From NCBI GenBank assembly GCA_007693585.1, contig REDH01000051.1, forward strand, positions 1-57,367: DNA of 57,367 bases, given 5' to 3'. The notes beneath the pieces are model-generated. The model worked only from the letters and a program-made list of their open reading frames with translations, ran no database searches and was not told the DNA's origin. Both the position numbers and the translations under genes were made by a program. This DNA is from Deltaproteobacteria bacterium. Lineage in GTDB: Bacteria > Myxococcota_A > Bradymonadia > REDH01. Positions 11,720 to 27,257 of this stretch are shown here, in pieces; positions within the stretch are counted from its first letter, which is position 1, and every line of letters starts with the position of its first letter.

Positions 11720-12460
11720 CTAGTCGGGCGGCGATCCAGGGTCCAGCCACCGATCGGGGAAGAGCACACGGGCGGTGAGTTCGGCCGCGGTGTCCTCACC
11801 GAAGATTCGGGCGAGCGCGTTGTGTTCCCGCCGGTTCGTGCGCTCCGCCTGCAGCCAGCGGCCGAGGCGGCTTGCGCGCTCCGGATCGGCTGTGTCCGCC
11901 CCGGGCACGAGCGCGGGCGCCAGCCGGCCCAGCCAGTGGGCGGTGGCGTCCACGGCGCGGGGAGAGTCCGCGGGCTCAAACCGGCCGATGATGGCTTCGC
12001 TCGAAAAGGTTCCGGTGGTGAATTCAGGGTGTGGGCGTTCGACGAAGGACGAGGGCAGCCCGGACTTCAGGTCGAGCAGAAGTCCGTGCCCGGTGGCGTT
12101 CCACCAGCTCGCGCAGATGGGCGCGAGATCCACGGCGTAGAGACTCAGCCGGCCCCCGAGCGCGATCAGATCCACGCCAACGACAGGGTTGACGGAGCCG
12201 GGATGAGGTAGCCCGATCACGGTCGCGCTGAGTGTGCTGCCGTCCACCTCGGAGCGGATATCCGCGACCAGAAGACTGAGCCACGCTTCGCCCCGCCAGG
12301 CGTCGACTCTCATGCGTACTGGTTTGCGACCGATCACGCCGGGAATGCACCGAAGATGCTCCGGGATCGACAGGGGCTCGGAAGCCAGCGACGGGACCAC
12401 CGTGTCGCGGCAGCCGGCGATGAGCCCTGCCAGAGCGTCGGAGAGGGTGTGCGAAGGCAT
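11720..12460 (-). CDS. Ferredoxin-dependent bilin reductase (PcyA/HY2 family, pre-PcyA-like)
   Basis: A 246-residue protein, the usual FDBR length. FDBRs reduce biliverdin with electrons from reduced ferredoxin in the cytoplasm. By eye it follows the PcyA scaffold. LPHPGSVNPVVGVDLIAL (84-101) matches the strand carrying the catalytic Asp of PcyA (Asp105), here Asp97. Then come LYAVDLAPI and FSSEAIIGRF. The C-terminal LQAERTNRREHNALARIFG plus AELTARVLF matches the conserved Q..N...L..FG...VLF end. The position of PcyA His88 appears to be Thr80, so phycocyanobilin is probably not the product. Its ATG lacks a clear ribosome site. It is divergent from murD and apart from the globin operon, but belongs to the same pathway. 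Confidence 0.83.
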   Translation of the reverse strand: MPSHTLSDALAGLIAGCRDTVVPSLASEPLSIPEHLRCIPGVIGRKPVRMRVDAWRGEAWLSLLVADIRSEVDGSTLSATVIGLPHPGSVNPVVGVDLIALGGRLSLYAVDLAPICASWWNATGHGLLLDLKSGLPSSFVERPHPEFTTGTFSSEAIIGRFEPADSPRAVDATAHWLGRLAPALVPGADTADPERASRLGRWLQAERTNRREHNALARIFGEDTAAELTARVLFPDRWLDPGSPPD

Positions 12461-12736
12461 GGTGCGTGGCGTCTGCCGCAACCTTCCCCGGGGACGCCGC
12501 TCGCGGGACAGGGTGCGATGGGGGACCAGCGTCCGGCACACGCCGGACGACGGGCCGAGGGTCGGCATGACCGGCGAACTGGTCAAGTGCGCGATGCTCC
12601 CGTGGGCGATGGGGGGCTCCTGCGTCCCTGGACGAAACCGCGGGGAGGCGTGCGGCGCTTGCGTGGCGGATCGCTGCGGGGCAGGATGCGGCTCCCGGGT
12701 GGGGGGCGTGGGGCCGCATGTTCTCGTGGAGGCTGA

Positions 12737-14158
12737 ATGCCCGTCGATCTGCTGCGCAGTCCGTTTCACCCGTCCCGAAGTGCGACACCGCAAGCACCCG
12801 TTGCCGTTCTCGGGCTCGGAGCGAGCGGCATGGGTGCCGTGCGGCTACTCCGGGCGATGGGACGGACGGTGGTCGCGTCCGACGAGCGGGCGACGCATCC
12901 GACGGTGCTCTGCGAGCTGGCGCGAACGGACCCGGGGTTGGCGCTTCACGCCGGAAGGCTCGTCGTTCCGTCCGGGTGTTCGGAGGTGGTGCTGACCCCC
13001 GGTCTGAACCCGGAGTGGGCAGAGCATCGCGAGCGCGAACCGATCGCGCGGCTCGGCGCGGCCGCCAGGCGGGGGCAGATCGCCCTCGTGTCGGAGGTGG
13101 TTCTCGCCCTTGGATGCGTGGCGGCGCCCCGCGTGGTGGTGGGGGGAACCGACGGGAAGAGCACGACGGCCGCGATGGTCCACCATCTCCTGCGCGCGCT
13201 TGATGTGGATGCTCTCCTCGGCGGAAACTCGTGGACGGCACTCGCGGACGTCGTCGTGGATGCGCCGGGCTGCTCGGCGGTGGTGGCGGAGGTCAGCGCC
13301 TTCCAGCTCTGGGCGCCTCAACGGCTGAACGCCGAGGTGGGAATCCTCACGAACGTGGCCGAGGATCATCTCGACCATTATGCGGATGTCGAAACGTATG
13401 CCGCGGCGAAGAGGCGGCTGCTCGAGGGGGAGGTCGGCCTCCGGGTGGTGAACGGGGAAGACGCGCGGCTGGCGACCTGGGCGTCGCAGTGGCAGGCCGC
13501 GGGGCATGCGATCTGTCGCGTGGAGGGCCCGTCCGCGGACGTGGCGATCCGTGTGTCCGAAGGGGTGCTGGACCTGGGCGACGGTCGGACGGTGCCGCTG
13601 GACCGACTGTCGCTCCCCGGGGCGCACAACCGCCGCAATGCGCTGAGTGCGCTGGTGGCGGTGGGGGAGGTGCTCGCACACCTGGGGCGCGAACTGGACG
13701 CGGAGGTGCTGGCGGAGGCACTGGCGGGGTTCCCGGGCCTTCCGCACCGGATGGAACGCGTGCGGGAGCGGGCGGGTGTGGTGTGGCGCAACGACTCGAA
13801 GGCGACGAATCTCCACGCGTCGATGGCGGGCATCGGCGCACTCGAGGGAACGGTCGTGGCGATCGTGGGGGGGGTCGACAAGGGCCTCGCGCTGGCCCCC
13901 TGGCTGGACGTGCTGCGGACGCGGTGCCGTGCGGTCGTGGCATTCGGGGCACTGCGCGCGCGCTTGCTTCGGGAGGTCGGCGACGACGCGCGGTTCACCG
14001 GGGTGGAGACCCTCGAGGAGGCGGTCGGTCTCGCGGCGACGCTTGCGCGGCCGGGGGACACCGTTGTGCTCAGTCCGGGCGCCAGCAGCTTCGACCAGTT
14101 CGCGGGGTTCGAGGCACGGGGCGAGGCGTTCCGGGCGCTGGTGAAGGGGCTGAGCTGA
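12737..14158 (+). CDS. murD: UDP-N-acetylmuramoyl-L-alanine--D-glutamate ligase (MurD)
   Basis: A 473-residue Mur ligase. It has an N-terminal Rossmann segment VAVLGLGASGMGAVRLL (22-38), the ATP-binding loop GTDGKSTT (137-144, with Asp where most have Asn), VAEVSAFQLW, NVAEDHLDHYADVETYAAAK, and LPHRMERVRERAGVVWRNDSKATN in the C-terminal domain. It adds D-Glu to UDP-MurNAc-L-Ala in peptidoglycan synthesis. It stands alone here rather than in a mur/fts cluster, between the bilin reductase and the globin operon. It is strongly biased to G-ending codons. Confidence 0.95.
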   Translation: MPVDLLRSPFHPSRSATPQAPVAVLGLGASGMGAVRLLRAMGRTVVASDERATHPTVLCELARTDPGLALHAGRLVVPSGCSEVVLTPGLNPEWAEHREREPIARLGAAARRGQIALVSEVVLALGCVAAPRVVVGGTDGKSTTAAMVHHLLRALDVDALLGGNSWTALADVVVDAPGCSAVVAEVSAFQLWAPQRLNAEVGILTNVAEDHLDHYADVETYAAAKRRLLEGEVGLRVVNGEDARLATWASQWQAAGHAICRVEGPSADVAIRVSEGVLDLGDGRTVPLDRLSLPGAHNRRNALSALVAVGEVLAHLGRELDAEVLAEALAGFPGLPHRMERVRERAGVVWRNDSKATNLHASMAGIGALEGTVVAIVGGVDKGLALAPWLDVLRTRCRAVVAFGALRARLLREVGDDARFTGVETLEEAVGLAATLARPGDTVVLSPGASSFDQFAGFEARGEAFRALVKGLS

Positions 14159-14279
14159 CGCGGGACGCCGGCGGTGTGCTCTTGCACCGGGTCATCGGCT
14201 GGCGTCTGTTCCTTCGTGCTGCCGGCCGGGCGGGGCGGGGGGGGACGGACACGCGGTTGTCCGGAGTGGGGCAGCGGGT

Positions 14280-15317: not shown

Positions 15318-15400
15318 CGCTGCCGGGGCTGCGGGGAGGAGCGACGGCCTCGCGGCCGCCCCTGGAGGGTGATGTGCTCTCCCTCGGCAGGCAAGGGGAA

Positions 15401-16735
15401 TCACGGCGCAGCAGGGCTTCCCGAGACCTGGAAGGTGATCCGGGGCCGCGGGCCGTCGGTGGAGACGCCCATCGCGATGTGCGCTCCGGGCCGCTCGCGG
15501 AGCAGGCGCTGCTGTTCGTCGCGCAGGCGCTTGGAAAAGCGGGGATAGTCGATGTGCTGCATGGGCTGGCCCGCCCGCTTCAGCGCGGTGAGAAACTCCG
15601 TGTAGACGCGCCGGCACTCGCGCTCGATCGGATCGGCGACACCGTGGACCAGGTCGTGCCGCGCGCGGTCGATGAGGTCCGAGGAGACGTCCTGGCGGAT
15701 GGTCGGCACGGCACCGCCCGGCATGGTGCCGGTCCCGTGGATGTTGCGGGAGGTTCGATGGGCCGGCGCGTCGGAGCCGAGCTGTGCGTGGGTGTCCGGG
15801 TCGAGGGCCGTGGCGCGTGGGGCGAGGGAGCGCGAGGTGACCACGGCGTCACGCTTCCGTCCACCCGCCTGGTGCACGGCGCGGCGCGCCGGGGGGCGGG
15901 CGAGGATGGCGGCGGGCATCGACTGCGCCGGCTCGGGGTCGGCGAACGCGCCGGCGAGTTCCTCGGCCGATGCCTGGCCATCACCAACGACGGAGAACTG
16001 TCCCGGTCGATCCGAGGGTGCGCCCGTTCCGAAAGGGCTGGTGCGGGCAACCTGGCTGAGCGGTCGCACGTCGGTCGCCGCGGGGGAGTCGGACGGCTTC
16101 TCGAACGACGCAACCGGTCGGGAGCCGGGAGTGGTCGAAGGGTTCGGCGGCTGCCCGGGCGAGGCCGCACGAGGCTTGCTGGCGCCGGTCAGCGAGATGC
16201 CGCGCGAGGCCGGCCGTGGGCCGGAGGAAGCCAGGTCGGGGTCGACATCGGAGAGCGCGAACAGCAGGGAACGAAACGACGGCTGGTAGTCGTCCTGCGG
16301 CACGTCCTTCGGCGCGAGATCCTCGAAGAGGGAGGTCGCTGGTGCGGCGTTTGTGCTCGGGTCGCCAGGGTCGTCGAAGGCGGCGAAGAGATCGTCGGCC
16401 GTGGTCGCGTTGACGGATGGGACCGGCGGACTGTCGGCGTCGTTCGGGGAGACCGATGGCCGACCGGCGGAGGGTGGATCGGTTCGGGCCTTCTCCTGGG
16501 CACCGGAGATGCTGCCGTCATCGGAACAATCCGTGGATGCGAGGTCGTCTGCGTCCGCATCATCGCGTCCGGGCGCCGTTCGAGTGCGAAGGACGAACAC
16601 GACGAGGAGGCAAAGGAGGGTACCGGCGACCACTCCGGTTGTGACGCCGAGCCGGGGGGCGACGGGAAGCAGGATGCCGGCGGCGGATCCGACCGCGATG
16701 ACGGGCAGAAGCAGCAGGATGTTCTTGCGTGTCAT
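15401..16735 (-). CDS. Membrane protein with MXAN_5187-type C-terminal domain
   Basis: A 444-residue protein. Two membrane helices at residues about 5-50 (NILLLLPVIAVGSAAGILL and VVAGTLLCLLVVFVL) are followed by about 290 residues of disordered Ser/Pro/Asp-rich sequence. A conserved-looking C-terminal domain ends it (CRRVYTEFLTALKRAGQP, IDYPRFSKRLRDEQQRLL, RITFQV). That end matches my memory of the MXAN_5187 C-terminal domain of myxobacterial proteins, whose role is unknown. The start overlaps the stop of the upstream kinase (ATGA), so the two are co-translated and this may be the kinase's partner or substrate. Confidence 0.75.
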   Translation of the reverse strand: MTRKNILLLLPVIAVGSAAGILLPVAPRLGVTTGVVAGTLLCLLVVFVLRTRTAPGRDDADADDLASTDCSDDGSISGAQEKARTDPPSAGRPSVSPNDADSPPVPSVNATTADDLFAAFDDPGDPSTNAAPATSLFEDLAPKDVPQDDYQPSFRSLLFALSDVDPDLASSGPRPASRGISLTGASKPRAASPGQPPNPSTTPGSRPVASFEKPSDSPAATDVRPLSQVARTSPFGTGAPSDRPGQFSVVGDGQASAEELAGAFADPEPAQSMPAAILARPPARRAVHQAGGRKRDAVVTSRSLAPRATALDPDTHAQLGSDAPAHRTSRNIHGTGTMPGGAVPTIRQDVSSDLIDRARHDLVHGVADPIERECRRVYTEFLTALKRAGQPMQHIDYPRFSKRLRDEQQRLLRERPGAHIAMGVSTDGPRPRITFQVSGSPAAP

Positions 16736-18480
16736 GAGGACTCCGTGGACAGGGACAGGGCGAAGGCGCGCAGCACGGGGGCGTCGTCGAGGCATCGCGC
16801 CAGAAGCAGGTCTCCACAGGCGCAGACGTCCGGGCCCAGATCGCGAACGTCGAGCATTCCGAGCGAGCGGGGTTGCCGGGTGTCGATGCCCTGGACGTGG
16901 AAGGCAGTGAGGGCGAGGAGTCGCCCGGGCCGTGGCGCCAGAAGCTCGAGCACCGGATCCTCGGTGGGACAGGTGGCGAGCACGAAGCCCTGCCGGGAGA
17001 TGAGCTGCAGTCCGGTGCGCCCTTGCGCAGCGATGGCAACCCCGCCGTCCTCGAGGGACGCGAGGAGGGGCTGGCCGACCGGGACGGTGAGATCGGCACG
17101 CATCGCGCCCGTTGGGTCGAGGGCCAGGAGTCGGGTCCGGGGAGACTCGGTCGCGATCCAGAGCAGGTGTCCCTCGTGGTCGAAGGCAACCGGAGGCAGC
17201 GTGCCCCAGGCGCTGACGTCGAATGAGCAGGCCTCGCCCTGCCCGTGGAGCGGGATTCGCTGCACGGCATTCGGGGTGGCGACGGCGATGGTGGAGCCAT
17301 CGGGAGCTGCGCGCAGATGCCGGGGACCCTCGGGAAGACCTTCGTGGAGGAGGTGGAGGCGGCCTTCCCGGAGCTGCAGAACCTGACACCGGTCGACGAG
17401 AAGAGGGTGCGGACTGCGGATGGTTCCCTCGATCAGCACGGCCTCCGGGTGGGGACGCGGCGCCTGATCGATGGGTCTGCCGTCTGCCCCGATGCGAACG
17501 ACCCGGTCGTGCAGGAGCAGGGCGGCCTGACCGTCGGCCAGCGACGCGATCTGAAGCGGACGCACGGGCAGGCGCAGGCGCCAGCACGCGACCCGCTCCA
17601 GTGCATGGTCGTGGGGAAGCACATGGGCACCGGTCCAGCGCTCGCCCCGGATCGTTGCCAGCACCCGGTCGACCAGGGTCTCGAGCTGCGCCGCCGACGA
17701 GGGCCGATCTCCGGGCTCCTTGGCGAGGAGTGTTTCCAGCAGTGCGCGAAGAGCCGGATGGAGGGAGTCGGGCAGCCCGGGAGCAAGCTGCCGATGGGCG
17801 TGCTTCAGGGCGGTCTGATCCCCGTGGAACGGGCGGCGGCCGAAGAGCAGTTCATAAAGAATGACACCGAGTGCGTAGAAGTCCACTCGGTGGTCGCAGT
17901 CGTCCCCGAACTGCTCGGGAGCCATGTACGCCGGAGAGCCATGGTCGAGCTGGAAAGTGGTGCCGGGTGCGGCGCGATGCGCGAGGCCGAAGTCGCAGAT
18001 CCGCACCGGGTGCAGCTCATGGGTGTGCAGCAGCAGCAGATTCTCGGGCTTCAGGTCGCGGTGGACGATGTCCCGCTCGTGGGCGAACCGAAGGCCCCGC
18101 ACGACATCCCGCAGAATGGCGAGCGCGTGGCGGGCGGGCAGCCTGTGCTGACGCACGAGGAGATCGCGGAGGCTTCCGCCGGCAGCGTACTCGTACGCGA
18201 TGTACTTTCGACCTGCGGAGTAGCCGAAGTCGAGGGTGCGGACGATGTGGGGATGTTGCTGATCGAAGAGCAGGCCGAGTTCCTTCAGGTATCCGGTATC
18301 CCGAAACTTCACGTCGAATATCTTGATGGCGGCCGGCGTGCGGTCGGCGAGGTTGCGGGCGAGCCAGACCGTGCCGAATGCACCGCTTCCGAGGGGCCGC
18401 TCGAGCCTCCAGCGTCCCCCGAGGAGGGCGGATGGCGCAGGGGACGATGGAGGGTCGTGAGGAGAGTGGAGAGTGGCCAT
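16732..18480 (-). CDS. Ser/Thr protein kinase with C-terminal beta-propeller-like sensor
   Basis: A 582-residue cytoplasmic Hanks kinase. It has LGSGAFGTVWLA (30-41), Lys53, HRDLKPEN (140-147, Asp142), DFG (163-165) and SPAYMAPEQF. The C-terminal 270 residues are repeats of short strands (LHLLHEGLPEGPRHLRAAPDG, VAFDHEGHLLWIATESP, LLALDPTGAMRADL), suggesting a beta-propeller-like domain. There is no membrane helix. It lies 71 bases after V4R protein A and is translationally coupled to the MXAN_5187-type membrane protein, so phosphorylation signalling appears to be part of the globin operon. Confidence 0.9.
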   Translation of the reverse strand: MATLHSPHDPPSSPAPSALLGGRWRLERPLGSGAFGTVWLARNLADRTPAAIKIFDVKFRDTGYLKELGLLFDQQHPHIVRTLDFGYSAGRKYIAYEYAAGGSLRDLLVRQHRLPARHALAILRDVVRGLRFAHERDIVHRDLKPENLLLLHTHELHPVRICDFGLAHRAAPGTTFQLDHGSPAYMAPEQFGDDCDHRVDFYALGVILYELLFGRRPFHGDQTALKHAHRQLAPGLPDSLHPALRALLETLLAKEPGDRPSSAAQLETLVDRVLATIRGERWTGAHVLPHDHALERVACWRLRLPVRPLQIASLADGQAALLLHDRVVRIGADGRPIDQAPRPHPEAVLIEGTIRSPHPLLVDRCQVLQLREGRLHLLHEGLPEGPRHLRAAPDGSTIAVATPNAVQRIPLHGQGEACSFDVSAWGTLPPVAFDHEGHLLWIATESPRTRLLALDPTGAMRADLTVPVGQPLLASLEDGGVAIAAQGRTGLQLISRQGFVLATCPTEDPVLELLAPRPGRLLALTAFHVQGIDTRQPRSLGMLDVRDLGPDVCACGDLLLARCLDDAPVLRAFALSLSTESS

Positions 18481-18551
18481 GGAGCCGTATCCGGTGCGTT
18501 CGGGTCGGTGCGTGGCCACCGGCGGTGTTCGCCCGGTCGACCACGCTGCGA

Positions 18552-19205
18552 TCAGCGGGGCTTGCGCAGCTCGGCGAGGAGCTGCTCGGAGGACGCACCA
18601 TCGAGGGCGAGCGCGCGGGCGGACTCGACCCGCTCCGGGACGGCGACGATGAAGCGGCAGCAGGGCGCGCCGGAGCGCTCGCACGCGATCTCGATGGCGT
18701 CGAGTTCCGTCTCGGCGAAACGGGAGGTCATCGCCGCAAGGAGCCCGGCGAAGATGTGACAGACCGTGTCGAACGGGCTGTCCGCGAGCAGCCGCGCGAA
18801 CACGGACCGGCGGAGCCTGAACTCGAGCAGACCTTCGTCCTCCAGGCCGAACTCCAGTTCGAGGTGGCCCCAGCCCTGATGCTCGAACAGCAGGCGCAGC
18901 CAGGTCTCGAAGGCCGTGAAGTCTGCGTCCGCCAGCGCGTGGCCATAGAAGTGGGTCCACTCCTGCTCCCATCGCCGGACGAGCCGCTCTCCCCATTGCC
19001 GCCCACAGCCGGTCATGATGAGCGGGAGCGCCTTGCCGGTCTCGTGCTCGGTCGCACGATGCACGCCGATGATGAGCTCCTCGGGCAGGACGAGCAGCTT
19101 GTGGCCGGACGCACTGCGGAGGGTACCCTCCCAGGCACTGGCCTCGATGTAGTCGTCCCTCAGGTAGAAGGGATGCGGAGCGATGTGGGCCATGGGAGCG
19201 GTCAT
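18552..19205 (-). CDS. V4R (4-vinyl reductase-type) domain protein A
   Basis: A 217-residue protein. The C-terminal half carries V4R features: SPFDTVCHIFAGLLAAMTSRF and DAIEIACERSGAPCCRFIV, with the paired Cys and E..C...G..CC.F pattern. The V4R fold binds small hydrophobic ligands or metals and occurs in BchJ-like proteins. The ATG at 19205 overlaps the globin stop (19202-19204) as ATGA; Met5 at 19193 is an alternative start. In published BBAG clusters two V4R proteins accompany the globin, as here. A role in binding or handing over bilin is inference. Confidence 0.8.
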   Translation of the reverse strand: MTAPMAHIAPHPFYLRDDYIEASAWEGTLRSASGHKLLVLPEELIIGVHRATEHETGKALPLIMTGCGRQWGERLVRRWEQEWTHFYGHALADADFTAFETWLRLLFEHQGWGHLELEFGLEDEGLLEFRLRRSVFARLLADSPFDTVCHIFAGLLAAMTSRFAETELDAIEIACERSGAPCCRFIVAVPERVESARALALDGASSEQLLAELRKPR

Positions 19206-19693
19206 CGCGCACCTCCACCGTCACGCTGCAGCGTGAGCAGTTCGTGCGTGCGACGAAGGTACGGGGCCAGCAGCCTGACCTGGTCCGCGGAGAGGTGCGC
19301 CTCCACCCGCTGCGGAAGCAGTCGGTACGTGGTGTCGATCACCGGACCCATCCGGAAGGCCTGCAGGATGGTGCGCAGCCAGTACAGCAGATGCTCCTCC
19401 AGGAACGTCATGTCCTGTCGGACCATGGCCTGGGTGCAGTAGCGCAGCACCAGACGGACGTCGCGCTCGCCCCTGGCCCGGGCATCGGCGTGACGGGTCT
19501 CGAAGTCGGGGTGCTGGGCCCAGACGGCATCGATGGTCTCCCGGACGATGGCATCCTCGTGGGCATCGACGGCGTGCATCGCGGAGAGCCGAGCGTCCAT
19601 TCCGGAGGCGAAGTCGGTGAGGGTGCGGGCCTCTTCCTGCGAGAAGTAGCGGCCCTCGGACTGACTGAAGAGCGACTGGAGGGATGGGTTCAT
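19202..19693 (-). CDS. Phycobiliprotein-like globin (bilin-biosynthesis-associated globin, BBAG)
   Basis: A 163-residue protein, the size of a phycobiliprotein subunit. The central helix RDVRLVLRYCTQAMVRQDMT and the following LEEHLLYWLRTILQAF align by eye with the RD..YYLR..TY...AGD...LDE..L.GL...Y.A stretch of phycocyanin and allophycocyanin. Arg77 and Asp78 match the Arg86/Asp87 that contact the bilin. The Cys84 that carries the thioether-linked bilin is replaced by Gly75, and the only Cys is Cys86. Binding, if any, is therefore non-covalent or unusual. A good AAGGAG precedes ATG 19693. Neighbours are two V4R proteins and a ferredoxin, the diagnostic BBAG company. Confidence 0.82.
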   Translation of the reverse strand: MNPSLQSLFSQSEGRYFSQEEARTLTDFASGMDARLSAMHAVDAHEDAIVRETIDAVWAQHPDFETRHADARARGERDVRLVLRYCTQAMVRQDMTFLEEHLLYWLRTILQAFRMGPVIDTTYRLLPQRVEAHLSADQVRLLAPYLRRTHELLTLQRDGGGAR

Positions 19694-19728: not shown

Positions 19729-20241
19729 TCACCAGTCGAGATCGCCGAACACGGCGTCGACGGTGGGCACGGGTGCCGCCCCCTCGGGGACAGGGGCGGT
19801 CTCGGCCGGCGACGAGGGCTTGCCGCTCCACACCACGGCGGAGAACCGCTGGCGCACGGAGCGGCCGATGGCGACCGCTGCGCGCTCCGGCACGCGCGGT
19901 CCATGCCAGGCGACGGCCTGCAGCCGAGCCCGGACGGAGACGCTTCCCGTCCGGGCGGAAGCGCTCTGCTCCGGGGCCGTCAGCCGTGATGCAGGCACCA
20001 TTGCTGGTTCGGGCTGGCCACGGTCCTGGACCTGGTTCCAGGCCGCATCCCACTCCGACGAGTCGGCGAGGGCTGGCAGGACGCGACTGCTGTCCTCCGC
20101 CGGAGGCTGCTGCTCCCCCGGAGCGCGACCAGGAGCCGGAACGGGTGGCGGCGGGGGCAACGAACCGGCACGGGACGAGCGACTGGCCAGCCCGAGGAGG
20201 CGGGACAGGGTGCTGCGGGTTCTGGGAGGCTGGTCGGTCAT
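19729..20241 (-). CDS. Proline-rich protein of the globin operon, unknown function
   Basis: A 170-residue low-complexity protein. Residues about 29-50 are a Pro-rich run (SLPPPPPVPAPGR). SEWDAAWNQVQ lies in the middle, a basic helix-prone segment (SVSVRARLQAVAW...VAIGRSVRQRF) follows, and an acidic-aromatic C-terminus DAVFGDLDW ends it. No known domain. It sits 15 bases after V4R protein B and 35 before the globin, with a GGAG site ahead of its ATG, so it is a real operon member. Its flexible build suggests an adaptor or linker rather than an enzyme (inference). Confidence 0.65.
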   Translation of the reverse strand: MTDQPPRTRSTLSRLLGLASRSSRAGSLPPPPPVPAPGRAPGEQQPPAEDSSRVLPALADSSEWDAAWNQVQDRGQPEPAMVPASRLTAPEQSASARTGSVSVRARLQAVAWHGPRVPERAAVAIGRSVRQRFSAVVWSGKPSSPAETAPVPEGAAPVPTVDAVFGDLDW

Positions 20242-20256: not shown

Positions 20257-20910
20257 TTACTGCTCGCCGAGGCGGCGAATGATGTCCGAGGCCCGGGCAC
20301 CTTCGCTCAACCAGAATTCCGCGGCGTCGACCCGCTTCTCGCTCCCGATCAGGAAGCGGCAGTGGTCCTCGCCCATCGCGTAGCACTGGATCTCGATGCA
20401 GCTCAGCTCGCGCCGGATGAAGGTGGAGAACGCTCCGGCCATCATCCCGGCGTAGAGGTGACAGACCGGCTTGCCGAGCGGCTCGAGGCTCTGCGCGACA
20501 GCCGAGTTGTACAGGTCCACCATGATGTAGCCCTGCTTCACCCGCGACAGGTCCACGCGCCAGGAACCCCAGCCAGCAGCGGTCAGCGGCCACCACCAGG
20601 TCTCGAGGACGAAGTTGACGTTCATGTCACGCGCGGAGCGCCCGAACTCGCCCTGGACGCGCTCCTCGAAGCGCTGCATGTCCACCTTCCCCCACTCGAG
20701 GCCGCACTGGTACATGATCACGGCGCTGGCCTCGCCCACCTCGTTCTCGAGACCCTCCTGCAGCCCGACGATGAAGTCCTCGGTGCACATCATGCCCACC
20801 CCGCCGTAGCCGAGCTGGAGCGCCGAGTCGCCGACGGTGCGACGCAGGAAGTCGCTCTTGCCGTAGTAGTTGTGCTTGCGGGCTTGCCCGCCGATCAGGA
20901 TGTCACTCAT
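20257..20910 (-). CDS. V4R domain protein B
   Basis: A 217-residue protein beginning MSDILIGGQARKHNYYGKSD. The C-terminal V4R domain is clear: PLGKPVCHLYAGMMAGAFSTF, LSCIEIQCYAMGEDHCRFLIG and the trailing helix. The Cys pattern matches V4R protein A, and the two have the same length, though the N-terminal halves differ. It follows the ferredoxin by 34 bases and precedes the Pro-rich protein. The start at 20910 has a GGTGGA site 5 bases away. Likely ligand: a bilin or another tetrapyrrole (inference from context). Confidence 0.82.
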   Translation of the reverse strand: MSDILIGGQARKHNYYGKSDFLRRTVGDSALQLGYGGVGMMCTEDFIVGLQEGLENEVGEASAVIMYQCGLEWGKVDMQRFEERVQGEFGRSARDMNVNFVLETWWWPLTAAGWGSWRVDLSRVKQGYIMVDLYNSAVAQSLEPLGKPVCHLYAGMMAGAFSTFIRRELSCIEIQCYAMGEDHCRFLIGSEKRVDAAEFWLSEGARASDIIRRLGEQ

Positions 20911-20944
20911 GAGTCCACCAGGGTTGTGGGGGGAAGAGAGAGGT

Positions 20945-21418
20945 TCACGCGTCGTCCGCCAGGTCGTCGTTGACCTGAAAGTCGACGTCATTGAGCTGCA
21001 TGATGAAGCTGCGTGTGATGATCTTGCCCGGTTCGACCAGGACTCGACCATCGATCGGATGGAGAATGGCGGTGCGCGCCCGTTTCCCGATGAGAGACTC
21101 GATGTCCTTTCGGTCGAGCGCATAGAGCCCATCGGGCAACGACACGCGGACGCCCTCGCCACAGACCCGCGCCTGACATGCGAGGCGGCTGTTCGGACGC
21201 GTGCCCGACAGACGACCCAGCGTGCGGTCCTCCCGGGCGTTGCGCGGAGAGAGCGACTCGGACCCCTCCTCCACGAAGACGTGGCACGTGGCACAAAGAC
21301 CCCGCCCGCCGCACGCCATCATCACCCCGACCTCCTCCGCGAGGAGGGCGTCGAGCACGCGTGCATTGGTCTTGATCTCGGGCTGACGCCCGAGCGGCAG
21401 CAGGCTGACCTTCTTCAT
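20945..21418 (-). CDS. 2Fe-2S ferredoxin (plant/chloroplast-type fold) with C-terminal extension
   Basis: A 157-residue protein with Cys36, Cys42 and Cys45 in ACGGRGLCATC and the fourth ligand Cys81 in LACQARV, the spacing of [2Fe-2S] ferredoxins. After the ferredoxin domain (about 95 residues) there is an extension of about 60 residues (LDRKDIESLIGKRARTAILHP...IITRSFIMQLNDVDFQVNDD) also seen in some adenylate-cyclase-linked ferredoxins. It is the obvious electron donor for the bilin reductase. Its ATG overlaps the stop of the preceding gene (ATGA), and V4R protein B follows. Confidence 0.9.
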   Translation of the reverse strand: MKKVSLLPLGRQPEIKTNARVLDALLAEEVGVMMACGGRGLCATCHVFVEEGSESLSPRNAREDRTLGRLSGTRPNSRLACQARVCGEGVRVSLPDGLYALDRKDIESLIGKRARTAILHPIDGRVLVEPGKIITRSFIMQLNDVDFQVNDDLADDA

Positions 21419-22776
21419 GACTCACCTCCAGGGTCGCACGCACTCCACGGCGCGGGGGGCAGGGGACCGAGCACCAGATCCTCGAAGGACGGAATCACTC
21501 GGCGCCCTCGGGAAACGACCTGCTCGAGGGCACCGTCCAGGTGGGGCATCTGCGTCGGGTCCACGCATGCCTGGGCGTCGTGCACCTGCACGGCCCCACT
21601 CGCAGAAACCCGAACGTGTCGATCGAGCTGGGCAACGCCGAGGGCCTGCCGCCAGTAGTTGGATGCGACCCGTGGACCCGTGTGATCGCCGATCGCGGCA
21701 ACGCTGCGCTCGATCCACGCACCCACCTCTTCCCAGCGGCAGGCAGCACTGAACGGGGCATCGGCCGGTGACATGTCCTCGCGAGTGTCCGACTCGACCA
21801 CGAGCTCCCACTGCAACTCGGACAGCGCGCCACCGCCGGAAGCGGCCGCGTGAACTCCCGCTCCCTTTTGGGGGTCCGCAGCCGGGGGGCGGGACCCAGC
21901 GGTTTCCGAAGCGCCCACGGCAGGGACCGAGAGCGTCGGCCCCTCCTCCCGCCTGGAGAGCACGCTCCGAGAGACAGACGATCCCGCACGGCTTCCCGAG
22001 CTGGCCCTCCGGATGGCGGCCCGCAGCAGGAGAGGACGGCACGGCTTGCCAAGCGCGACATGCAACCCGTGACCGCTCGTCACGACCAGCAGATGGTGCT
22101 GGGGCGTCAGAAGCCGAAGCTCGGTGATGTCCAGCTCGGTCTCCAGAACCATCGAGCACAGCAGCTCGGCGGTCTCCTCCCAGACACCGGCGTCCGTTGC
22201 CGGCTCCCGGAGCACGGACCACGTCCCCTGACGCTGCATCTCCCAGATGCCCGCCTCCGGCCCGGAACGACCTCCGGTGCCAAAGAGGGCACCGGGCACG
22301 TTCACCGTGCTTGCAAGAAACGCCTCCAGATCGGGACAGGAGTCACCATCGCACAGATGGACGTGCCGGCTGTCGTCGATCGCGAGCCAGCGGCCGGTCG
22401 TGGTCCACAGGGATGCGCCGCTCCACGGACCCCGCTGGTGTGAAGCAGCGGTCTCGAGGGCCGCGCGCAACAGCTCGACCACGTCCCTCGGCACGTCTGG
22501 GCCATGCCCTTCCGAGACCACGCGACCAAGCCGATCGAGCGTCCGCCGCCGCATCGGTCCCTGTCCGTCGCTTCCCGAAGGACGCTCGGGCCCACCATCT
22601 GCCGCTCCACCTCCGGAAGCGGAAGGACCGGGCTCGACGGTCCGGCCCGACGGCGAGCGGCTGCTTTTGAGATGCGTGTTCACGGGGGGGAATCTCGGGG
22701 CGGGGTCTGCAGACCACGAGCTGCGGCTGCCGGTCCCAGCCATTTCAAGGCCCGTGCCAGCGACTGTTTCATTCAT
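21415..22776 (-). CDS. Hypothetical first gene of globin operon (possible roadblock/LC7-like segment)
   Basis: The first ORF of the operon, about 380-450 residues depending on start. ATG 22776 gives the longest plausible form. ATG 22554 has a CAGGGA site and lies downstream of a putative -24/-12 promoter at 22759-22744, so I favour 22554. The core has two blocks. The first ends in LLCSMVLETELDITELRLLTPQHHLLVVTSGHGLHVALG and faintly resembles a roadblock/LC7 fold. The second contains WEEVGAWIERSVAAIGDHTGPRVASNYWRQALG. A Ser/Gly/Pro-rich linker joins them. No catalytic motif. It is translationally coupled to the ferredoxin. Confidence 0.6.
   Translation of the reverse strand: MNETVAGTGLEMAGTGSRSSWSADPAPRFPPVNTHLKSSRSPSGRTVEPGPSASGGGAADGGPERPSGSDGQGPMRRRTLDRLGRVVSEGHGPDVPRDVVELLRAALETAASHQRGPWSGASLWTTTGRWLAIDDSRHVHLCDGDSCPDLEAFLASTVNVPGALFGTGGRSGPEAGIWEMQRQGTWSVLREPATDAGVWEETAELLCSMVLETELDITELRLLTPQHHLLVVTSGHGLHVALGKPCRPLLLRAAIRRASSGSRAGSSVSRSVLSRREEGPTLSVPAVGASETAGSRPPAADPQKGAGVHAAASGGGALSELQWELVVESDTREDMSPADAPFSAACRWEEVGAWIERSVAAIGDHTGPRVASNYWRQALGVAQLDRHVRVSASGAVQVHDAQACVDPTQMPHLDGALEQVVSRGRRVIPSFEDLVLGPLPPAPWSACDPGGES
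22744..22759 (-). promoter_or_regulatory. Candidate sigma-54 (-24/-12) promoter of globin operon
   Basis: On the minus strand TGGCACGGGCCTTGAA matches the consensus TGGCACGNNNNTTGCW with a perfect -24 block. The -12 block is TTGAA, so the usual C of the GC doublet is replaced. Predicted transcription would start near 22733 and supports a downstream translation start (22554). The RpoN-activator gene lies immediately upstream. Confidence 0.5.
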
Positions 22777-22793
22777 CGAACGCGTTGTTCGAT
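22775..22793. promoter_or_regulatory. Inverted repeat next to the -24/-12 element
   Basis: ATCGAACGCGTTGTTCGAT has perfect 7-bp arms around a 5-bp spacer. It lies about 16 bases upstream of the -24 element on the minus strand. It resembles the Gram-positive SOS box core CGAAC...GTTCG, but the spacer is 5, not 4. It could be a binding site for the neighbouring regulator. Confidence 0.4.
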
Positions 22794-22933
22794 TGTGGGG
22801 CCATCTTCCCGTTTCCTGCATACGCGCACCACCCTGGCGGCCGATGTCGGCTCCGGGGGGGGCTCCCACAGGAACCGGCATGACGCGGCGCATCGCACAA
22901 ACAGATGGCGCATCCGTGGAACGGTGCGTTCAT

Positions 22934-22957: not shown

Positions 22958-23048
22958 GTGGAGGGCGCTGGTGCAGCCGGATCCCCAGGAAGGAGCGCCG
23001 AAGCGGGTGTGGGGTCTTGCACACCCGACTGCAGGGATGTGCACACGT

Positions 23049-23098
<50 letters not shown>

Positions 23099-23410
23099 CA
23101 CCCGCTCCGTTCACGCAGTAGAGCGTCGCACTGCTGCACGCTGCCGTGCGGTCGTCAGGTGGGCCGGCCACGGAGAGGCGTCGTCCCAGGCGACCGCCGG
23201 GAACCGGCCACTGCACTGCTGGGCGGTGACCGGGTCGTGTCCCGGACGGGCCCGGTACGCTTGCGGAAATCTCGACGCACGGCAACTGCACGCGCGTGCG
23301 GCTCACCGTGTGGGCGGAGAGCACGGGTCCGCCGGGTCTCGTGGCATGCACGGACGTTCGAATGCGGCCCTGTACTGGCCGACTTCAGCCGCGGTCGAAC
23401 CGACTGGCGC

Positions 23411-24760
23411 TCAGAGGAGACCGAGCTTCTTCAGCCGATGCCGAAGCTGATAGCGGCTCAGACCCAGAAGCTTCGCCGCGGCGCTCTGATTGCCGCCGCA
23501 TCGATCCATGGCCTGACGCACGAGATGCGCTTCGACGTCCTCCAGCCGAACACCGCCTTCCGGAAGGACGAAACGATCCAGGTCGTCGGGTGGTGACGCA
23601 TAGCGCACTGCGGGTGGCAAGTGCTCCGGAAGAATCTGCTCTCCGTCCACGAAGACGGAGAGTCGTTCCATCGTGTTCTTCAGCTCGCGAACGTTCCCGG
23701 GCCAACAGTAGTCCAGAAGGTGCTTCGCGGCCGGTGCCGAGATCGTCAGAACGGGACGCTCGAACTGTCCTGCGAACGAGGCGAGGAAGACCCGAGCCAG
23801 TGCGAGAATGTCCTCCTTGCGCTCGCGCAGGGGCGGAATCGAAAGCGGGATGACGGCGAGGCGATAATAGAGATCCTGACGGAACCGGCCCTTCTCGACC
23901 TCCAGCCGGAGGTCTCGGTGGGTCGCTGCGACCACGGACGCGCGGAGAGGCAGGGTCTCCGTGCCCCCCACCCGGCGAAAGGTCCTGCTCTCGAGGGCCC
24001 TCAGAAGCTTGGACTGAACCCCCTCCGGGAGCTCACCCACCTCGTCCAGAAAGACGATCCCGTCCTCCGCGGACCCGAACAGGCCGAGCTGGCGCTGGTT
24101 CGCACCGGTGAACGCCCCCCGCTCGTGGCCGAAGAGCGTGGACTCGAAGAGCGCGTCGGGGATGGTCGAACAGTCCACCTCCACGAACGGGCGAGCGCGG
24201 CGGCACCCTTCGTGATGGAGCGCCCGCGCCACCAGCTCCTTGCCTGTGCCCGACTCGCCGTGCAGCAGGACGGTGGAAAAGTCCAGCTCCCTCAGTCGGG
24301 ACAGCTGGTCGAACACGTGGTGCATCGCTGGAGAGGCCGCCTGCAGCTCCGCGTATGTCCTCAAGGCAGAATGGGACTCCGGAGCGCCAGGGTTGCGATG
24401 TCCCGTTTCGCGTCGGAGCGACTCCAGCAGCCGCTTCGGCTCGAACGGCTTCATCAGGAACTCCGAGGCCCCCAGCCGGGTCGCCTTGACCGCCGAGGAG
24501 ACGTCCCCCTGACCGGTCAGGATGAGGACGGCTCCCTCGTACCCCTCCCGACGCAACGTCCGCAGAATCCGCAGGCCGTCCTCGTCGGGAAGTCCAAGAT
24601 CCAGGAGCAGGGCGTCCGGAGGCTCGAGCCGGACCCGGTCGAGGGCGTCCCGTCCGCTCGCCGCCTCCTCCACATGAAGACCGTCCGAACGCAGCAGGCG
24701 CACGACGCTCCGCCGCAGGCGGTCATCGTCATCACAGATCAGGACACGTCGTTGACTCAT
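23411..24760 (-). CDS. Sigma-54-dependent NtrC-family response regulator
   Basis: A 449-residue three-domain regulator. The receiver domain has the acidic pair at 10-11, phospho-acceptor Asp54, Thr82 and Lys104. The AAA+ domain has Walker A GESGTGKE (168-175), the sigma-54 contact loop GAFTGA (215-220), VFLDEVGELP and the arginine-finger region FRQDLYYRL. The Fis-type helix-turn-helix is at the C-terminus (GGNQSAAAKLLGLSRYQLRHRLKKLG). Start ATG 24760 has GGGAGAG upstream. It is divergent from a histidine kinase and flanked by the globin operon on one side and, past the kinase, heme oxygenase on the other. It is the likely activator of both. Confidence 0.95.
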   Translation of the reverse strand: MSQRRVLICDDDDRLRRSVVRLLRSDGLHVEEAASGRDALDRVRLEPPDALLLDLGLPDEDGLRILRTLRREGYEGAVLILTGQGDVSSAVKATRLGASEFLMKPFEPKRLLESLRRETGHRNPGAPESHSALRTYAELQAASPAMHHVFDQLSRLRELDFSTVLLHGESGTGKELVARALHHEGCRRARPFVEVDCSTIPDALFESTLFGHERGAFTGANQRQLGLFGSAEDGIVFLDEVGELPEGVQSKLLRALESRTFRRVGGTETLPLRASVVAATHRDLRLEVEKGRFRQDLYYRLAVIPLSIPPLRERKEDILALARVFLASFAGQFERPVLTISAPAAKHLLDYCWPGNVRELKNTMERLSVFVDGEQILPEHLPPAVRYASPPDDLDRFVLPEGGVRLEDVEAHLVRQAMDRCGGNQSAAAKLLGLSRYQLRHRLKKLGLL

Positions 24761-24883
24761 TCTCTCCCTGTGAACAGTGCATCCCGTTCGAGCCTGCGGA
24801 AGCCGTCTTCGCGGTGTCGAAACGGTCACCGACCACTCGCGCTTCTGCCGCTCCACTTCAAACCCCCGCCCGGCGCAACGAGC

Positions 24884-26431
24884 ATGGATGCATCCACACC
24901 GGATTCTGATGCGGAAACGCCACCGGACAGCGCTCCGGAACCCGATCGAACCACCCCGATCTCACGCGGGCTGCCGGTTCCCGACGATGTGAAGTCAATG
25001 CGCGCTCGACCATGGGTAGCGTCCCTGCTGGATCATCTGCCGGCGGGCATTGCCCTGATCGACGAGTTCGGCTTCATCCGGGACCTGAGCCGGGAAGGCG
25101 CGGAACTGCTGGGCGTGAAGCGACGGGAGATGATCGGCCAGCATGTGCTGGCCACGGTGCCGGACGGGCTTCGAGACGTGGCCATGGAGGCGTTCGATGC
25201 CCTCGTCCGCTCCGACGTGCTGCAGGATGCCGTCTGGCCCATGAACCAGGGTTTCGGAGGAATTCGCAGCTTGCGCCTGCGCCATCGCGGCTGGACTGCG
25301 CCGGATGGCAGTCGATGGGTGCTCGCCGTCGCGATGCACGAGCAGGAGAACGTCGATCGGGCTGCCGAATTGCTGCGCAGTACGGAGGTGATCGAGCGGC
25401 TGCTGGAGCAGCTCCCCGGGACGATCGCGCGTCTTGATCCCGCCGACATCGTTCGGTGGATGCGTCCCTCGGGCGGGGTGGCCGCCGCCATGAATCTCGA
25501 TCAGCGGGTCATCCATCAACTCAGCGATCTCGTGCCTGCGGACATTCTCGAGATCCTTCCGCCGTCCGTCCGCGACGGACAGCAGTCGTTCCGGTTTCGT
25601 GCCCGGGACGACGATCCCGACACCCTCCTCGAGGGCTGGTTTTTTCCCATGACCAGCGGAGAGTCGACCCTGCAGCTACGCCTCGTCCACCGAAAGGCAG
25701 GGCGCTACCGTCGGGAGCTGCAGGAGGCGATGGACCTCCTCTACGCGGGCCTCGCCCACGAGATCCGGAATCCGCTGGCGCTCGCGCGGACCAGCCTCGG
25801 CTACCTCGAACGCCGCCTCGATATCCCTGCGGACCCCGATCTGGCCGAGGCCTTCGACGACATTCGCGATGCGCTGCGACAGGTGGCCGATGTCCTCCAG
25901 CACATGCGCACGGTTCACCACGGCGTGGCATCGCCCGGGATCACCGACCTCCGGGAGGTGGTCGAGCGAAGCCTTCGGGTCGCCCGCGTCGGATTCCCGG
26001 ACGGGGTCGTCGTGCACCACGAGCCTGGCCCCCCCGCACCGGTACACGGCCCCCGGCAGCCCCTCGTCCAGGTGCTCGTCAACCTGCTGACCAACGCTGG
26101 AAACGCGCTGCGCCGGGTGCCCGAGAATGCGCGCTGCATTCGCATCGAGCTCCGGCGAGACGCCGACTGGCAGGTCCTGAGGCTGTCCGACACCGGCAAT
26201 GGCCTCGCGCCCGAGCAACTCCGGCACCTCTTCACCGGCGGGAGCAGCAGCCGGGTCACCGAGGAGTCCAGCGGACTCGGGCTCTTCCTCTCCCGGCAGA
26301 TCGTCGAGTCCTTCGGCGGAGATCTCGCCTTCGAGGGCCCATCCCGAAGCGGGACCACCGTGTCCCTGCGGCTCAGGGTCGCGGACGACGACAGGAAAGG
26401 GGAGACGGACACCGGGACCGGCAGCTCCTGA
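24884..26431 (+). CDS. PAS-domain sensor histidine kinase
   Basis: A 515-residue soluble kinase with no membrane helix or signal peptide. A PAS domain covers residues about 45-155 (LLDHLPAGIALIDEFGFIRDLSREGAELLG), and a second PAS-like region about 168-270 (LLEQLPGTIARLDPADIVRWMRPSGG). HisKA has His292 in LAHEIRNPL, and HATPase_c has NLLTNAGNAL, DTGNGLAPEQL and SSGLGLFLSRQIVESFGG. No GAF/PHY module and no bilin-attachment Cys are visible, so it is not a classical phytochrome; its signal is unknown. The gene is divergent from the sigma-54 regulator (123 bases apart), forming an obvious two-component pair. Confidence 0.93.
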   Translation: MDASTPDSDAETPPDSAPEPDRTTPISRGLPVPDDVKSMRARPWVASLLDHLPAGIALIDEFGFIRDLSREGAELLGVKRREMIGQHVLATVPDGLRDVAMEAFDALVRSDVLQDAVWPMNQGFGGIRSLRLRHRGWTAPDGSRWVLAVAMHEQENVDRAAELLRSTEVIERLLEQLPGTIARLDPADIVRWMRPSGGVAAAMNLDQRVIHQLSDLVPADILEILPPSVRDGQQSFRFRARDDDPDTLLEGWFFPMTSGESTLQLRLVHRKAGRYRRELQEAMDLLYAGLAHEIRNPLALARTSLGYLERRLDIPADPDLAEAFDDIRDALRQVADVLQHMRTVHHGVASPGITDLREVVERSLRVARVGFPDGVVVHHEPGPPAPVHGPRQPLVQVLVNLLTNAGNALRRVPENARCIRIELRRDADWQVLRLSDTGNGLAPEQLRHLFTGGSSSRVTEESSGLGLFLSRQIVESFGGDLAFEGPSRSGTTVSLRLRVADDDRKGETDTGTGSS

Positions 26432-26501
26432 GCCACGTTGCACGGGCGAAACGGTGTGTACCGACAGGGACTGCCGTGCCACACACTCCTCTCACGGCCG
26501 G

Positions 26502-26517
26502 TGGCACGTATTCTGCT
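26502..26517 (+). promoter_or_regulatory. Sigma-54 (-24/-12) promoter of heme oxygenase gene
   Basis: TGGCACGTATTCTGCT matches TGGCACGNNNNTTGCW at every fixed position except the first T of the -12 block. The essential GG and GC doublets are present with correct spacing. The predicted start near 26528 leaves a 5' leader of about 45 bases before ATG 26574. Confidence 0.72.
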
Positions 26518-26573
26518 TGAGGGCATGGGTGTCGCAGCACTCCTTGCGATGTCCCCCCACGCCCCGGTATGTC

Positions 26574-27257
26574 ATGAACCACTCTGTCCTCTCCACGCGC
26601 TCGAACCCTCCCGTGCCTCGATCGCCCGTCGGTCGGCCGGATGGACAACCCCTCCACGTGCTCCTGCGAGACGGCACGCGGCAGGTGCACAATGCCATCG
26701 AGGAGGCCGAACTGCACAGACGACTCCTGGAGCACACCCTGTCCCGCCAGGAATACGCCCACCAACTGCAGATCTACTGCACTGCCTGGTCCACGCTGGA
26801 GAGCGTGGCCGCATCATGGCAGGCGAAGGCTCCGGAGCTCCTCGGTCTGCTCCACAGCCGCGTTCCTGCGCTCGAACAGGACCTCGAGCGCCTGGGCGCT
26901 TCGCGCTGGCCCCTTCCGGAGAAGGCGCTGGATCGTCTCCTGCGGTGGAGGGAGGAGGCGCTCGCAGAAGCGAGCGCCGGCAGTCCAGCGGTCATCGGTC
27001 GCGTCTACGTCATGGAGGGGGCCTCGCTGGGCGCCCGGATCCAGATCCGGCACTTGCGCCGTTGTCCGGAGGTGCCCGAGGAGGCCCTCACCTTCTTCAG
27101 CCAGTGCGCAGACCGGGAGAGCGGTCGGTGGGGCGCCTTTCTGCACGCCCTCGCTGCCCGACCCTTCGTCCGGACGGATGCCGAGGAGATCGTTCTGGGC
27201 GCTTGCCGACAGTTCGAGGCGCTGCACGAGCTCTTCGAGCTGTGCGTCCGGATCTGA
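26574..27257 (+). CDS. Heme oxygenase (biliverdin-forming)
   Basis: A 227-residue heme oxygenase of the bacterial BphO/HO type. LRDGTRQVHNAIEEAELH contains the proximal heme ligand, probably His39. The distal helix region is VIGRVYVMEGASLGARIQIRHL, matching the conserved Y-V-x-E-G-S-x-L-G-G segment. It opens heme to biliverdin, CO and iron, giving substrate for the bilin reductase encoded at 11.7-12.5 kb. ATG 26574 is the only good start before the domain. The first 25 residues are probably disordered. It follows the histidine kinase by 142 bases, has its own -24/-12 promoter, and converges with the flotillin operon. Confidence 0.9.
   Translation: MNHSVLSTRSNPPVPRSPVGRPDGQPLHVLLRDGTRQVHNAIEEAELHRRLLEHTLSRQEYAHQLQIYCTAWSTLESVAASWQAKAPELLGLLHSRVPALEQDLERLGASRWPLPEKALDRLLRWREEALAEASAGSPAVIGRVYVMEGASLGARIQIRHLRRCPEVPEEALTFFSQCADRESGRWGAFLHALAARPFVRTDAEEIVLGACRQFEALHELFELCVRI

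What the first reader, a model, noticed from the sequence alone, without database searches (positions are those of the whole stretch)
11720..27257. Complete-looking bilin system (heme oxygenase, bilin reductase, phycobiliprotein-like globin, V4R pair, ferredoxin) in a probable non-photosynthetic bacterium
The sequence shows an FDBR (11720-12460), a heme oxygenase (26574-27257) and one minus-strand operon with a phycobiliprotein-like globin, two V4R proteins and a 2Fe-2S ferredoxin. This is the combination recalled from published work on pre-PcyA reductases and bilin-biosynthesis-associated globins (BBAGs), proposed as ancestors of cyanobacterial phycobiliproteins. Nothing photosynthetic is seen around it. 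What the bilin is for in such an organism is unknown.
Basis: partly seen in the sequence, partly recalled or inferred. Interest (0 to 1): 0.95.

Follow-up and report, generated by a model that had tools for sequence, protein, structure and literature searches.

The report
Bilin gene cluster with signalling kinase
A non-photosynthetic bacterium carries the genes to make a bilin pigment and a relative of the cyanobacterial light-harvesting proteins, a known kind of gene cluster, and comparison with its relatives shows two overlooked companions, a signalling kinase and a small scaffold-like protein, which hint that the cluster is a sensor rather than an antenna.

Summary
In detail: FDBR (11720-12460), heme oxygenase (26574-27257) and one minus-strand operon with ferredoxin, V4R pair and phycobiliprotein-like globin. 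It is a new member of a published kind, the pre-3/BBAG cluster of Rockwell et al. 2023 (PMC10151467). The FDBR has the pre-3 residues (Glu76 to Ala, His88 to Thr, Asp105 kept) and its model matches PcyA; the globin lacks the bilin-attaching Cys (GERD, not CxRD). Both keep their slots in most Myxococcota and cyanobacterial loci read, and the cluster kinases share one branch (97/98) across both groups. In Synechocystis the kinase that ends this operon is SpkG, needed for phosphorylation of ferredoxin 5. The genome holds a second such cluster beside a bacteriophytochrome-like gene; no Photo_RC gene was found. I read it as a bilin/ferredoxin-coupled Ser/Thr-kinase sensing complex. Identity, linkage and kinship of the parts are shown; the sensing role is inferred.

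The parts
11720..12460 (-). pre-3-type ferredoxin-dependent bilin reductase (FDBR)
16732..18480 (-). Ser/Thr protein kinase of the cluster, kinase domain plus all-strand C-terminal domain
   Evidence: Pfam Pkinase 5.5e-51; branch 97/98; motifs AAIK, HRDLKPEN, DFG, APE; model pLDDT 77
18552..19205 (-). V4R protein B
   Evidence: position conserved
19202..19693 (-). bilin biosynthesis-associated globin (BBAG) with GERD in place of CxRD
19729..20241 (-). small Pro-rich protein with three copies of a V..(F)F..V.W-like motif
20257..20910 (-). V4R protein A
20945..21418 (-). 2Fe-2S ferredoxin with conserved C-terminal extension
21415..22893 (-). protein of unknown family, first gene of the operon (start uncertain, perhaps a GTG near 22680); similar ORFs in L014, L022, L023
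23411..24760 (-). NtrC-type response regulator (receiver, sigma-54 interaction and Fis-type domains)
24890..26431 (+). PAS histidine kinase (start uncertain)
26502..26516 (+). sigma-54-type promoter candidate, one mismatch to a recalled consensus, 57 bp before the heme oxygenase ATG
22745..22759 (-). weak sigma-54-type promoter candidate before the operon (the C of the -12 GC is missing)
26574..27257 (+). heme oxygenase

Best explanation
A bilin- and ferredoxin-coupled Ser/Thr-kinase sensing complex. Heme oxygenase makes biliverdin; the pre-3 FDBR, fed by a ferredoxin (perhaps the operon's own), reduces its A ring to phytochromobilin and perhaps phycoerythrobilin. The globin holds the bilin, here without the usual thioether Cys; the V4R pair, of a domain said to bind small hydrophobic molecules, helps load or sense it; the motif protein tethers the parts; and the kinase phosphorylates partners such as the ferredoxin according to bilin or redox state. 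The NtrC-type regulator and the divergent histidine kinase switch on heme oxygenase and operon. Shown here: identities, gene order, conservation and common descent of the kinase, motif conservation, pre-3 residues, absence of the Cys. Inferred: complex formation in this organism, reaction products, regulation, and the direction of signalling.
For: A kinase follows V4R-B on the same strand in the window, in cluster 2 (L014) and in L015-L019. Of the 80 best of 313 loci found through V4R-A in named genomes, 51 have a kinase within 4.5 kb downstream of V4R-A on the same strand (45 cyanobacterial, 6 others), 22 (all cyanobacterial) do not, 7 are too short to judge. In a tree of 77 kinase domains, all 34 first domains of cluster kinases put in, plus 3 unlinked cyanobacterial ones, lie on one side of a branch (97/98) and the other 36 background kinases and 4 second domains on the other; the background includes four of the window genome's best-matching non-cluster kinases. 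In 13 of 13 non-Myxococcota genomes with a linked kinase the best listed match to the window kinase is the linked one. Motif protein: pattern met in 81 of 85 loci against a mean of 0.9 loci in shuffles. Literature: spkG is transcribed as last gene of slr0144-slr0152 and ferredoxin 5 is not phosphorylated in its mutant (PMC11863333, passages); interactions of Slr0144-Slr0149 were validated by affinity purification (PMC9880817, passages); BBAGs bind bilins and are not efficient light harvesters (PMC10151467, Results parts 1-3 of 4 and Discussion part 1 of 2). A phytochrome-like gene lies about 1.4 kb past cluster 2's kinase.
Against: Kinase activity of SpkG itself is unverified (PMC11863333). 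In five Myxococcota genomes (G363, G216, G350, G263, G318) the best listed match to the window kinase is not the cluster kinase; only 56 of 126-321 candidates per genome were scored. In four of them the cluster kinase is a divergent two-domain type that scores lower against the window kinase (87-103 bits for the first domain, 79 in L019) than the best non-cluster kinases (128-142 bits) and joins the clade by a long branch. In 22 of 73 judgeable loci no kinase follows. In L021 a second globin and an FDBR-like ORF stand between V4R-B and the kinase, and in L020 the kinase ORFs stand before the ferredoxin. Without the CxRD Cys the window globin may not hold a bilin covalently. The sigma-54 motif is no commoner than chance overall. 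No wet data exist for this organism.
Confidence: 0.5

Rival explanations
1. Bilin or heme-breakdown handling: the globin and V4R pair are carriers or traps for biliverdin products (iron recycling, antioxidant), and the kinase only tunes the pathway.
For: Heme oxygenase and FDBR lie near the operon; V4R-A has weak likeness to BchJ, a protein of tetrapyrrole metabolism (E 7.6e-4, 19.4 bits against a cut-off of 74.3). BBAGs bind bilins but lack the high fluorescence of phycobiliproteins (PMC10151467).
Against: In the cyanobacterial loci read no heme oxygenase or FDBR was found beside the core by single-sequence search with the window proteins, while kinase and motif protein mostly stay. That search could miss divergent enzymes.
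Confidence: 0.25
2. Assembly or electron-transfer module: the ferredoxin with its C-terminal extension is the working part and the complex matures or repairs a redox enzyme, as claimed for photosystem II in Synechocystis; bilin is a structural cofactor.
For: slr0144-slr0152 is linked to photosystem assembly and repair (PMC10151467; PMC13174344, passages); the ferredoxin is well conserved, extension included.
Against: No PF00124 reaction-centre gene in this genome, so photosystem II cannot be the client here.
Confidence: 0.17
3. Recent import from cyanobacteria, without a settled role.
For: Patchy spread: V4R-A in 7 of 377 genomes of the phylum.
Against: Window kinase and globin group with other Myxococcota copies, outside the cyanobacterial clades; window G+C is 69%; the genome keeps two diverged copies of the cluster.
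Confidence: 0.03

Closest known systems
Pre-3 FDBR / BBAG-3 clusters, mostly of Myxococcales (Rockwell, Martin and Lagarias 2023, PMC10151467)
   Same: FDBR without Glu76, with Thr at His88 and Asp105 kept; heme oxygenase, Fe-S protein, V4R pair, globin; Myxococcota host
   Different: FDBR sits outside the operon; globin lacks CxRD; two clusters in one genome. Kinase and motif protein are shown here to be shared by such clusters; in the paper's main text the word kinase occurs once, in a reference title; its figures and SI were not seen, and its own sequences were not compared here
Synechocystis slr0144-slr0152 operon (with SpkG and ferredoxin 5)
   Same: V4R proteins, Fe-S protein, globin and a terminal Ser/Thr kinase, by the papers read; the related cyanobacterial loci read here also have the motif protein after V4R-A
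   Different: No FDBR or heme oxygenase in the cyanobacterial cluster (PMC10151467); tied to photosystem repair; the Synechocystis genes themselves were not compared here
Light-harvesting phycobiliproteins
   Same: Pfam Phycobilisome family
   Different: Separate clade (100/98); Cys of CxRD present in 12 of 13 phycobiliproteins aligned, absent in the window

Membership tests
Ferredoxin-dependent bilin reductase | FDBR profile and fold | tested here: met
   Pfam hit below cut-off and own-genome Pfam scan empty; profile of four sequences hits PcyA 3e-16; model matches PcyA
Pre-3 FDBR | no Glu76, Thr at His88, Asp105 kept | tested here: met
   Ala65, Thr79, Asp96 in the window; E/H/D in 6 of 10 cyanobacterial FDBRs aligned, the PcyA type
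Pre-3 FDBR | branches with pre-3 sequences | tested here: inconclusive
   One clade with 7 Myxococcota relatives (95/96), but the published pre-3 sequences were not at hand and the window branch is long
Pre-3 FDBR | makes phytochromobilin and phycoerythrobilin | not testable with these tools
   needs expression
BBAG-1/BBAG-3 globin | phycobilisome family, cluster-linked, outside the phycobiliprotein clade | tested here: met
BBAG-1/BBAG-3 globin | CxRD motif (said to be in some members only, so not required) | tested here: not met
   GERD; paralogue in cluster 2 AVRD
Light-harvesting phycobiliprotein | in the phycobiliprotein clade, with CxRD Cys | tested here: not met
PcyA | Glu76, His88, Asp105 | tested here: not met
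   only Asp105 kept
SpkG-like cluster kinase | one clade with cyanobacterial cluster kinases and same gene slot | tested here: met
   Synechocystis SpkG itself was not in the tree
SpkG-like cluster kinase | needed for phosphorylation of the cluster ferredoxin | not testable with these tools
   known only from the Synechocystis mutant
Heme oxygenase | Heme_oxygenase profile | tested here: met
   4.8e-16

The most novel reading that the evidence does not exclude
The cluster from which cyanobacteria drew their PcyA and BBAG genes was, and in many species still is, a Ser/Thr-kinase signalling complex (ferredoxin, two V4R proteins, motif scaffold, bilin globin, SpkG-type kinase), so that the globin family of phycobilisomes has its roots beside a sensor of heterotrophic bacteria, and the photosystem-repair operon of cyanobacteria is a re-used version of that sensor.
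Probability: 0.35. Interest if true: 0.85.

Novelty: new member of a known kind. Interest (0 to 1): 0.6.

Why it matters
The 2023 paper says that the functions of BBAGs are not yet known. A kinase and a motif protein that keep their slot from Myxococcota to cyanobacteria give the cluster a possible output and a testable architecture, and tie a non-photosynthetic bilin system to a reported phosphorylation (ferredoxin 5, lost in the spkG mutant). It also bears on how light-harvesting phycobiliproteins arose.

Tried and rejected
Considered: spurious ORFs in a high-G+C window (rejected: profiles, structure, relatives). PcyA or true phycobiliprotein (rejected by residues and trees). Chance adjacency of one of many kinases (45 matches listed for the own genome; rejected by slot conservation and tree). 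A link between loss of the kinase and loss of the motif in Pseudanabaena, seen with the first strict pattern, fell away once the variant motifs there (W or Y in place of F) were read and allowed. Sigma-54 sites: total counts are not above chance (35 vs 44.8 expected; 12 vs 17.7); with at most one mismatch the window has 4 (2.7 expected) and L014 has 2 (1.2 expected), one of them perfect and before cluster 2's operon (L014:6329-6343, 0.05 expected); a two-mismatch site near the cluster-2 heme oxygenase lies inside a histidine kinase gene and was dropped. The phylum of L028 (5 genomes) and that of L033 (149) gave 1 and 2 genomes with V4R-A; pre-1 clusters could not be reached. Plasmids: two records of one Acaryochloris strain only. 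The kinase model's C-terminal part (about 293-577) is nearly all strands, but the 50 PDB rows shown matched kinases, so 'propeller' would be a guess. NCBIfam names that hit kinase or V4R proteins are far below their cut-offs and were ignored.

Limits of counts; candidates were not all scored in kinase-rich genomes, including three of the 13 (G383, G386, G391: 56 of 58-72); positions were compared with the loci by hand. I gave 22 of the 45 cyanobacterial linked kinases and left out those of L020 (fragments); L021 and L024 are part domains; the background was the best non-cluster matches that had been fetched; 3 rows labelled background fell inside the cluster clade and were then recognised as the best matches of genomes whose clusters lack a neighbouring kinase; the pattern had been widened after reading sequences (the strict one gave 56 of 85), the L028 row was swapped by hand for its second-longest ORF, and L031, L034, L087, L098 of 89 loci were dropped for lack of an ORF or globin; L015/L024 and L021/L025 are the same contigs. 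Misses were L014, L016, L017, L020; L014's other frame holds two copies. The window pattern was written after seeing the window sequence. The control (117 of 4015 ORFs) includes the motif ORFs themselves; of 28 loci tried for phycobiliproteins, 15 gave an alignable row, and 2 of these (L212, L215) were cluster globins, removed; 10 of 12 fetched cyanobacterial FDBR loci gave a row.
Full report
WHAT IS THERE. The minus-strand run 22893-16732 holds, in order of transcription, a protein of unknown family, a 2Fe-2S ferredoxin, V4R-A, a small Pro-rich protein, a phycobiliprotein-like globin, V4R-B and a Ser/Thr kinase, with gaps of -4 to 71 bp. Upstream on the same strand is an NtrC-type response regulator; divergent from it are a PAS histidine kinase and the heme oxygenase at 26574-27257. 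The FDBR (11720-12460) is on the operon's strand, 4.3 kb beyond the kinase; a MurD-like gene on the other strand (12737-14158) lies between.

THE FDBR IS REAL AND OF PRE-3 TYPE. On its own it scores 20.6 bits with Pfam Fe_bilin_red, under the 31-bit cut-off, and the Pfam scan of the own genome was empty. ORFs in three Myxococcota clusters match it at 8e-28 to 1e-31. The joint profile finds PcyA, PebA and PebB chains in the PDB (best 3.4e-16). The AlphaFold2 model (pLDDT 88.8, pTM 0.87) has PcyA as best matches. Ala65, Thr79 and Asp96 stand at Glu76, His88 and Asp105; six of ten cyanobacterial FDBRs aligned, the PcyA type, have E/H/D. Rockwell et al. (PMC10151467, Results parts 1-3 of 4) give lack of Glu76 with Thr at 88 and Asp at 105 as the mark of pre-3, whose tested member makes phytochromobilin and phycoerythrobilin. 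In the tree the window joins seven Myxococcota relatives (95/96; its own branch is long, and two of the seven have Glu at Asp105). FDBRs of this profile occur in 8 of 377 genomes of the phylum at E 1e-6, two of them divergent; further divergent ones sit in the L022 cluster (1e-12) and, weakly, in L021 (6e-5).

THE GLOBIN. It hits Phycobilisome at 2.5e-19, groups with the copy in cluster 2 (98/95) and lies outside the phycobiliprotein clade (100/98). The covalent-attachment Cys of CxRD is Gly in the window and Ala in cluster 2; it is Cys in 12 of 13 phycobiliproteins aligned and in the globins of L017-L019, L022, L023 and L033. The paper already says that only some BBAGs have the motif, so this is a variant, not an exception.

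THE MISSED KINASE. A kinase follows V4R-B in the window, in cluster 2 and in L015-L019. In L021 a second globin and an FDBR-like ORF come between, and L020, a second cluster of G263, has kinase ORFs before the ferredoxin instead. In 51 of these a kinase follows within 4.5 kb on the same strand, in 22 not, and 7 are too short to tell. The 22 are all cyanobacterial by title, 13 of them titled Pseudanabaena. In 13 of 13 non-Myxococcota genomes with a linked kinase, among 11-57 matches each, the linked one is the best listed match to the window kinase (coordinates compared by hand). In a tree of 77 kinase domains all 34 first domains of cluster kinases that I put in, with 3 unlinked cyanobacterial kinases, lie on one side of a branch (97/98); the other 36 background kinases and the 4 second domains lie outside. 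Those 3 are the best matches in G387-G389, whose clusters lack a neighbouring kinase. Against this: in five Myxococcota genomes the best listed match is not the cluster kinase, with only part of the candidates scored. In four of them (loci L016-L019) the cluster has two kinase domains, in one or two ORFs; the first joins the clade by a long branch, the second does not. The window kinase keeps the catalytic motifs.

WHY SpkG MATTERS. A 2025 review (PMC11863333, passages) says that spkG is transcribed as the last gene of slr0144-slr0152 and that ferredoxin 5 is no longer phosphorylated in its mutant, while kinase activity itself has not been verified. Another paper (PMC7860145, passages) says that the cluster encodes ferredoxin 5. 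PMC9880817 (passages) reports that interactions of Slr0144-Slr0149 were validated by affinity purification with tagged Slr0149. That slr0148 is ferredoxin 5, that slr0145 is the motif protein and that the phosphosites are Thr18 and Thr72 is from memory; the window ferredoxin has Thr17, Thr in 42 of 45 cluster ferredoxins. In the main text of PMC10151467 the word kinase occurs once, in a reference title; its figures and SI were not seen. Four paper searches (listings, plus passages of PMC6213207) showed none that names the kinase as part of these clusters outside cyanobacteria; the library lacks most subscription papers.

THE MOTIF PROTEIN. Between V4R-A and the globin lies a short ORF with no Pfam or NCBIfam match in the window copy or in one cyanobacterial copy. 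The window copy has SVRARLQAVAW, SVRQRFSAVVW and TVDAVFGDLDW; with a pattern written after seeing them, 0 of 20000 shuffles gave three. A pattern [VLIA]xx[FYLRVKQ][FWYL]xx[VILFMC]xW is met in 81 of 85 loci, twice in 68, against a mean of 0.9 loci in shuffles; 117 of 4015 ORFs of 80-250 aa in the same loci, all frames, carry it, the motif ORFs included. The pattern was widened after a first strict version (56 of 85). Position and repeats suggest a scaffold with docking motifs; that is inference.

SECOND CLUSTER AND PHYTOCHROME. The own genome has a second cluster on contig C60 (L014): heme oxygenase, response regulator, then the same gene order through the kinase, with a histidine kinase gene between heme oxygenase and regulator read by eye and a perfect -24/-12 site before the operon. 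No FDBR was found in the 39.5 kb of C60 read (L014, L155). About 1.4 kb past its kinase lies a 1287-residue ORF with GAF, PHY, PAS, histidine-kinase ATPase and receiver domains (C60:153494-157354), the only PHY match of the genome. Its N-terminal Cys and the lack of a GAF Cys, read by eye, suggest a biliverdin-binding bacteriophytochrome. So biliverdin has a plausible second client here. PF00124 reaction centres gave no match. The host is probably of class Bradymonadia: G212, 'same class', has a contig of the same length and gene layout as L024, titled Bradymonadaceae.

HOW IT MAY WORK. Heme oxygenase gives biliverdin; ferredoxin and FDBR give an A-ring-reduced bilin; globin and V4R pair hold it; the motif protein tethers; the kinase reports bilin or redox state by phosphorylation, perhaps of the ferredoxin, as reported for the SpkG mutant of Synechocystis. 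The two-component pair would set expression. Identities, linkage and descent are shown; the flow of signal is not. Rivals (bilin handling; assembly or electron transfer; recent import) are weighed in their sections.

VERDICT. Observation confirmed and interpretation sound; the locus is a new member of a known kind. The added value is the conserved kinase and motif protein, which turn 'function unknown' into a testable signalling model.

Noticed in passing
L028:13724-16777 (SXND01000150.1): One 1018-aa ORF holds eight tandem BBAG-like globin domains (hmmsearch, each i-E 6e-10 or better); it follows the cluster kinase and precedes a single BBAG and a heme oxygenase: an 'octaglobin' beside a bilin cluster.
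   Followed up: partly
L021:4955-5437 and 6109-6636 (G318, same contig as L025): Two globins of a Myxococcales MAG branch at the base of the light-harvesting phycobiliproteins (96/86 for the first, 85/88 for the second); long branches, so doubtful, but a candidate nearest non-cyanobacterial kin.
   Followed up: partly
L018:6267-9014, also L016, L017, L019: Cluster kinases with two kinase domains (one 916-aa ORF in L018, two ORFs in L016 and L017); the second domain is of another lineage.
   Followed up: partly
window 23049-23098: A perfect CCG repeat of 16.7 copies between the response regulator and the operon; could vary in length.
   Followed up: no
window 5177-9151: A second Ser/Thr kinase gene in the window (1324-aa ORF, Pkinase 1.5e-34), not part of the cluster; its kinship was not tested.
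   Followed up: no
window 26574-27257 versus L016-L018: Heme oxygenases of the clusters look of two sequence types (MEGASLGAR-like in the window and L014, YLGDLSGGQ-like in L016-L018), so the enzyme may have been exchanged (read by eye).
   Followed up: no
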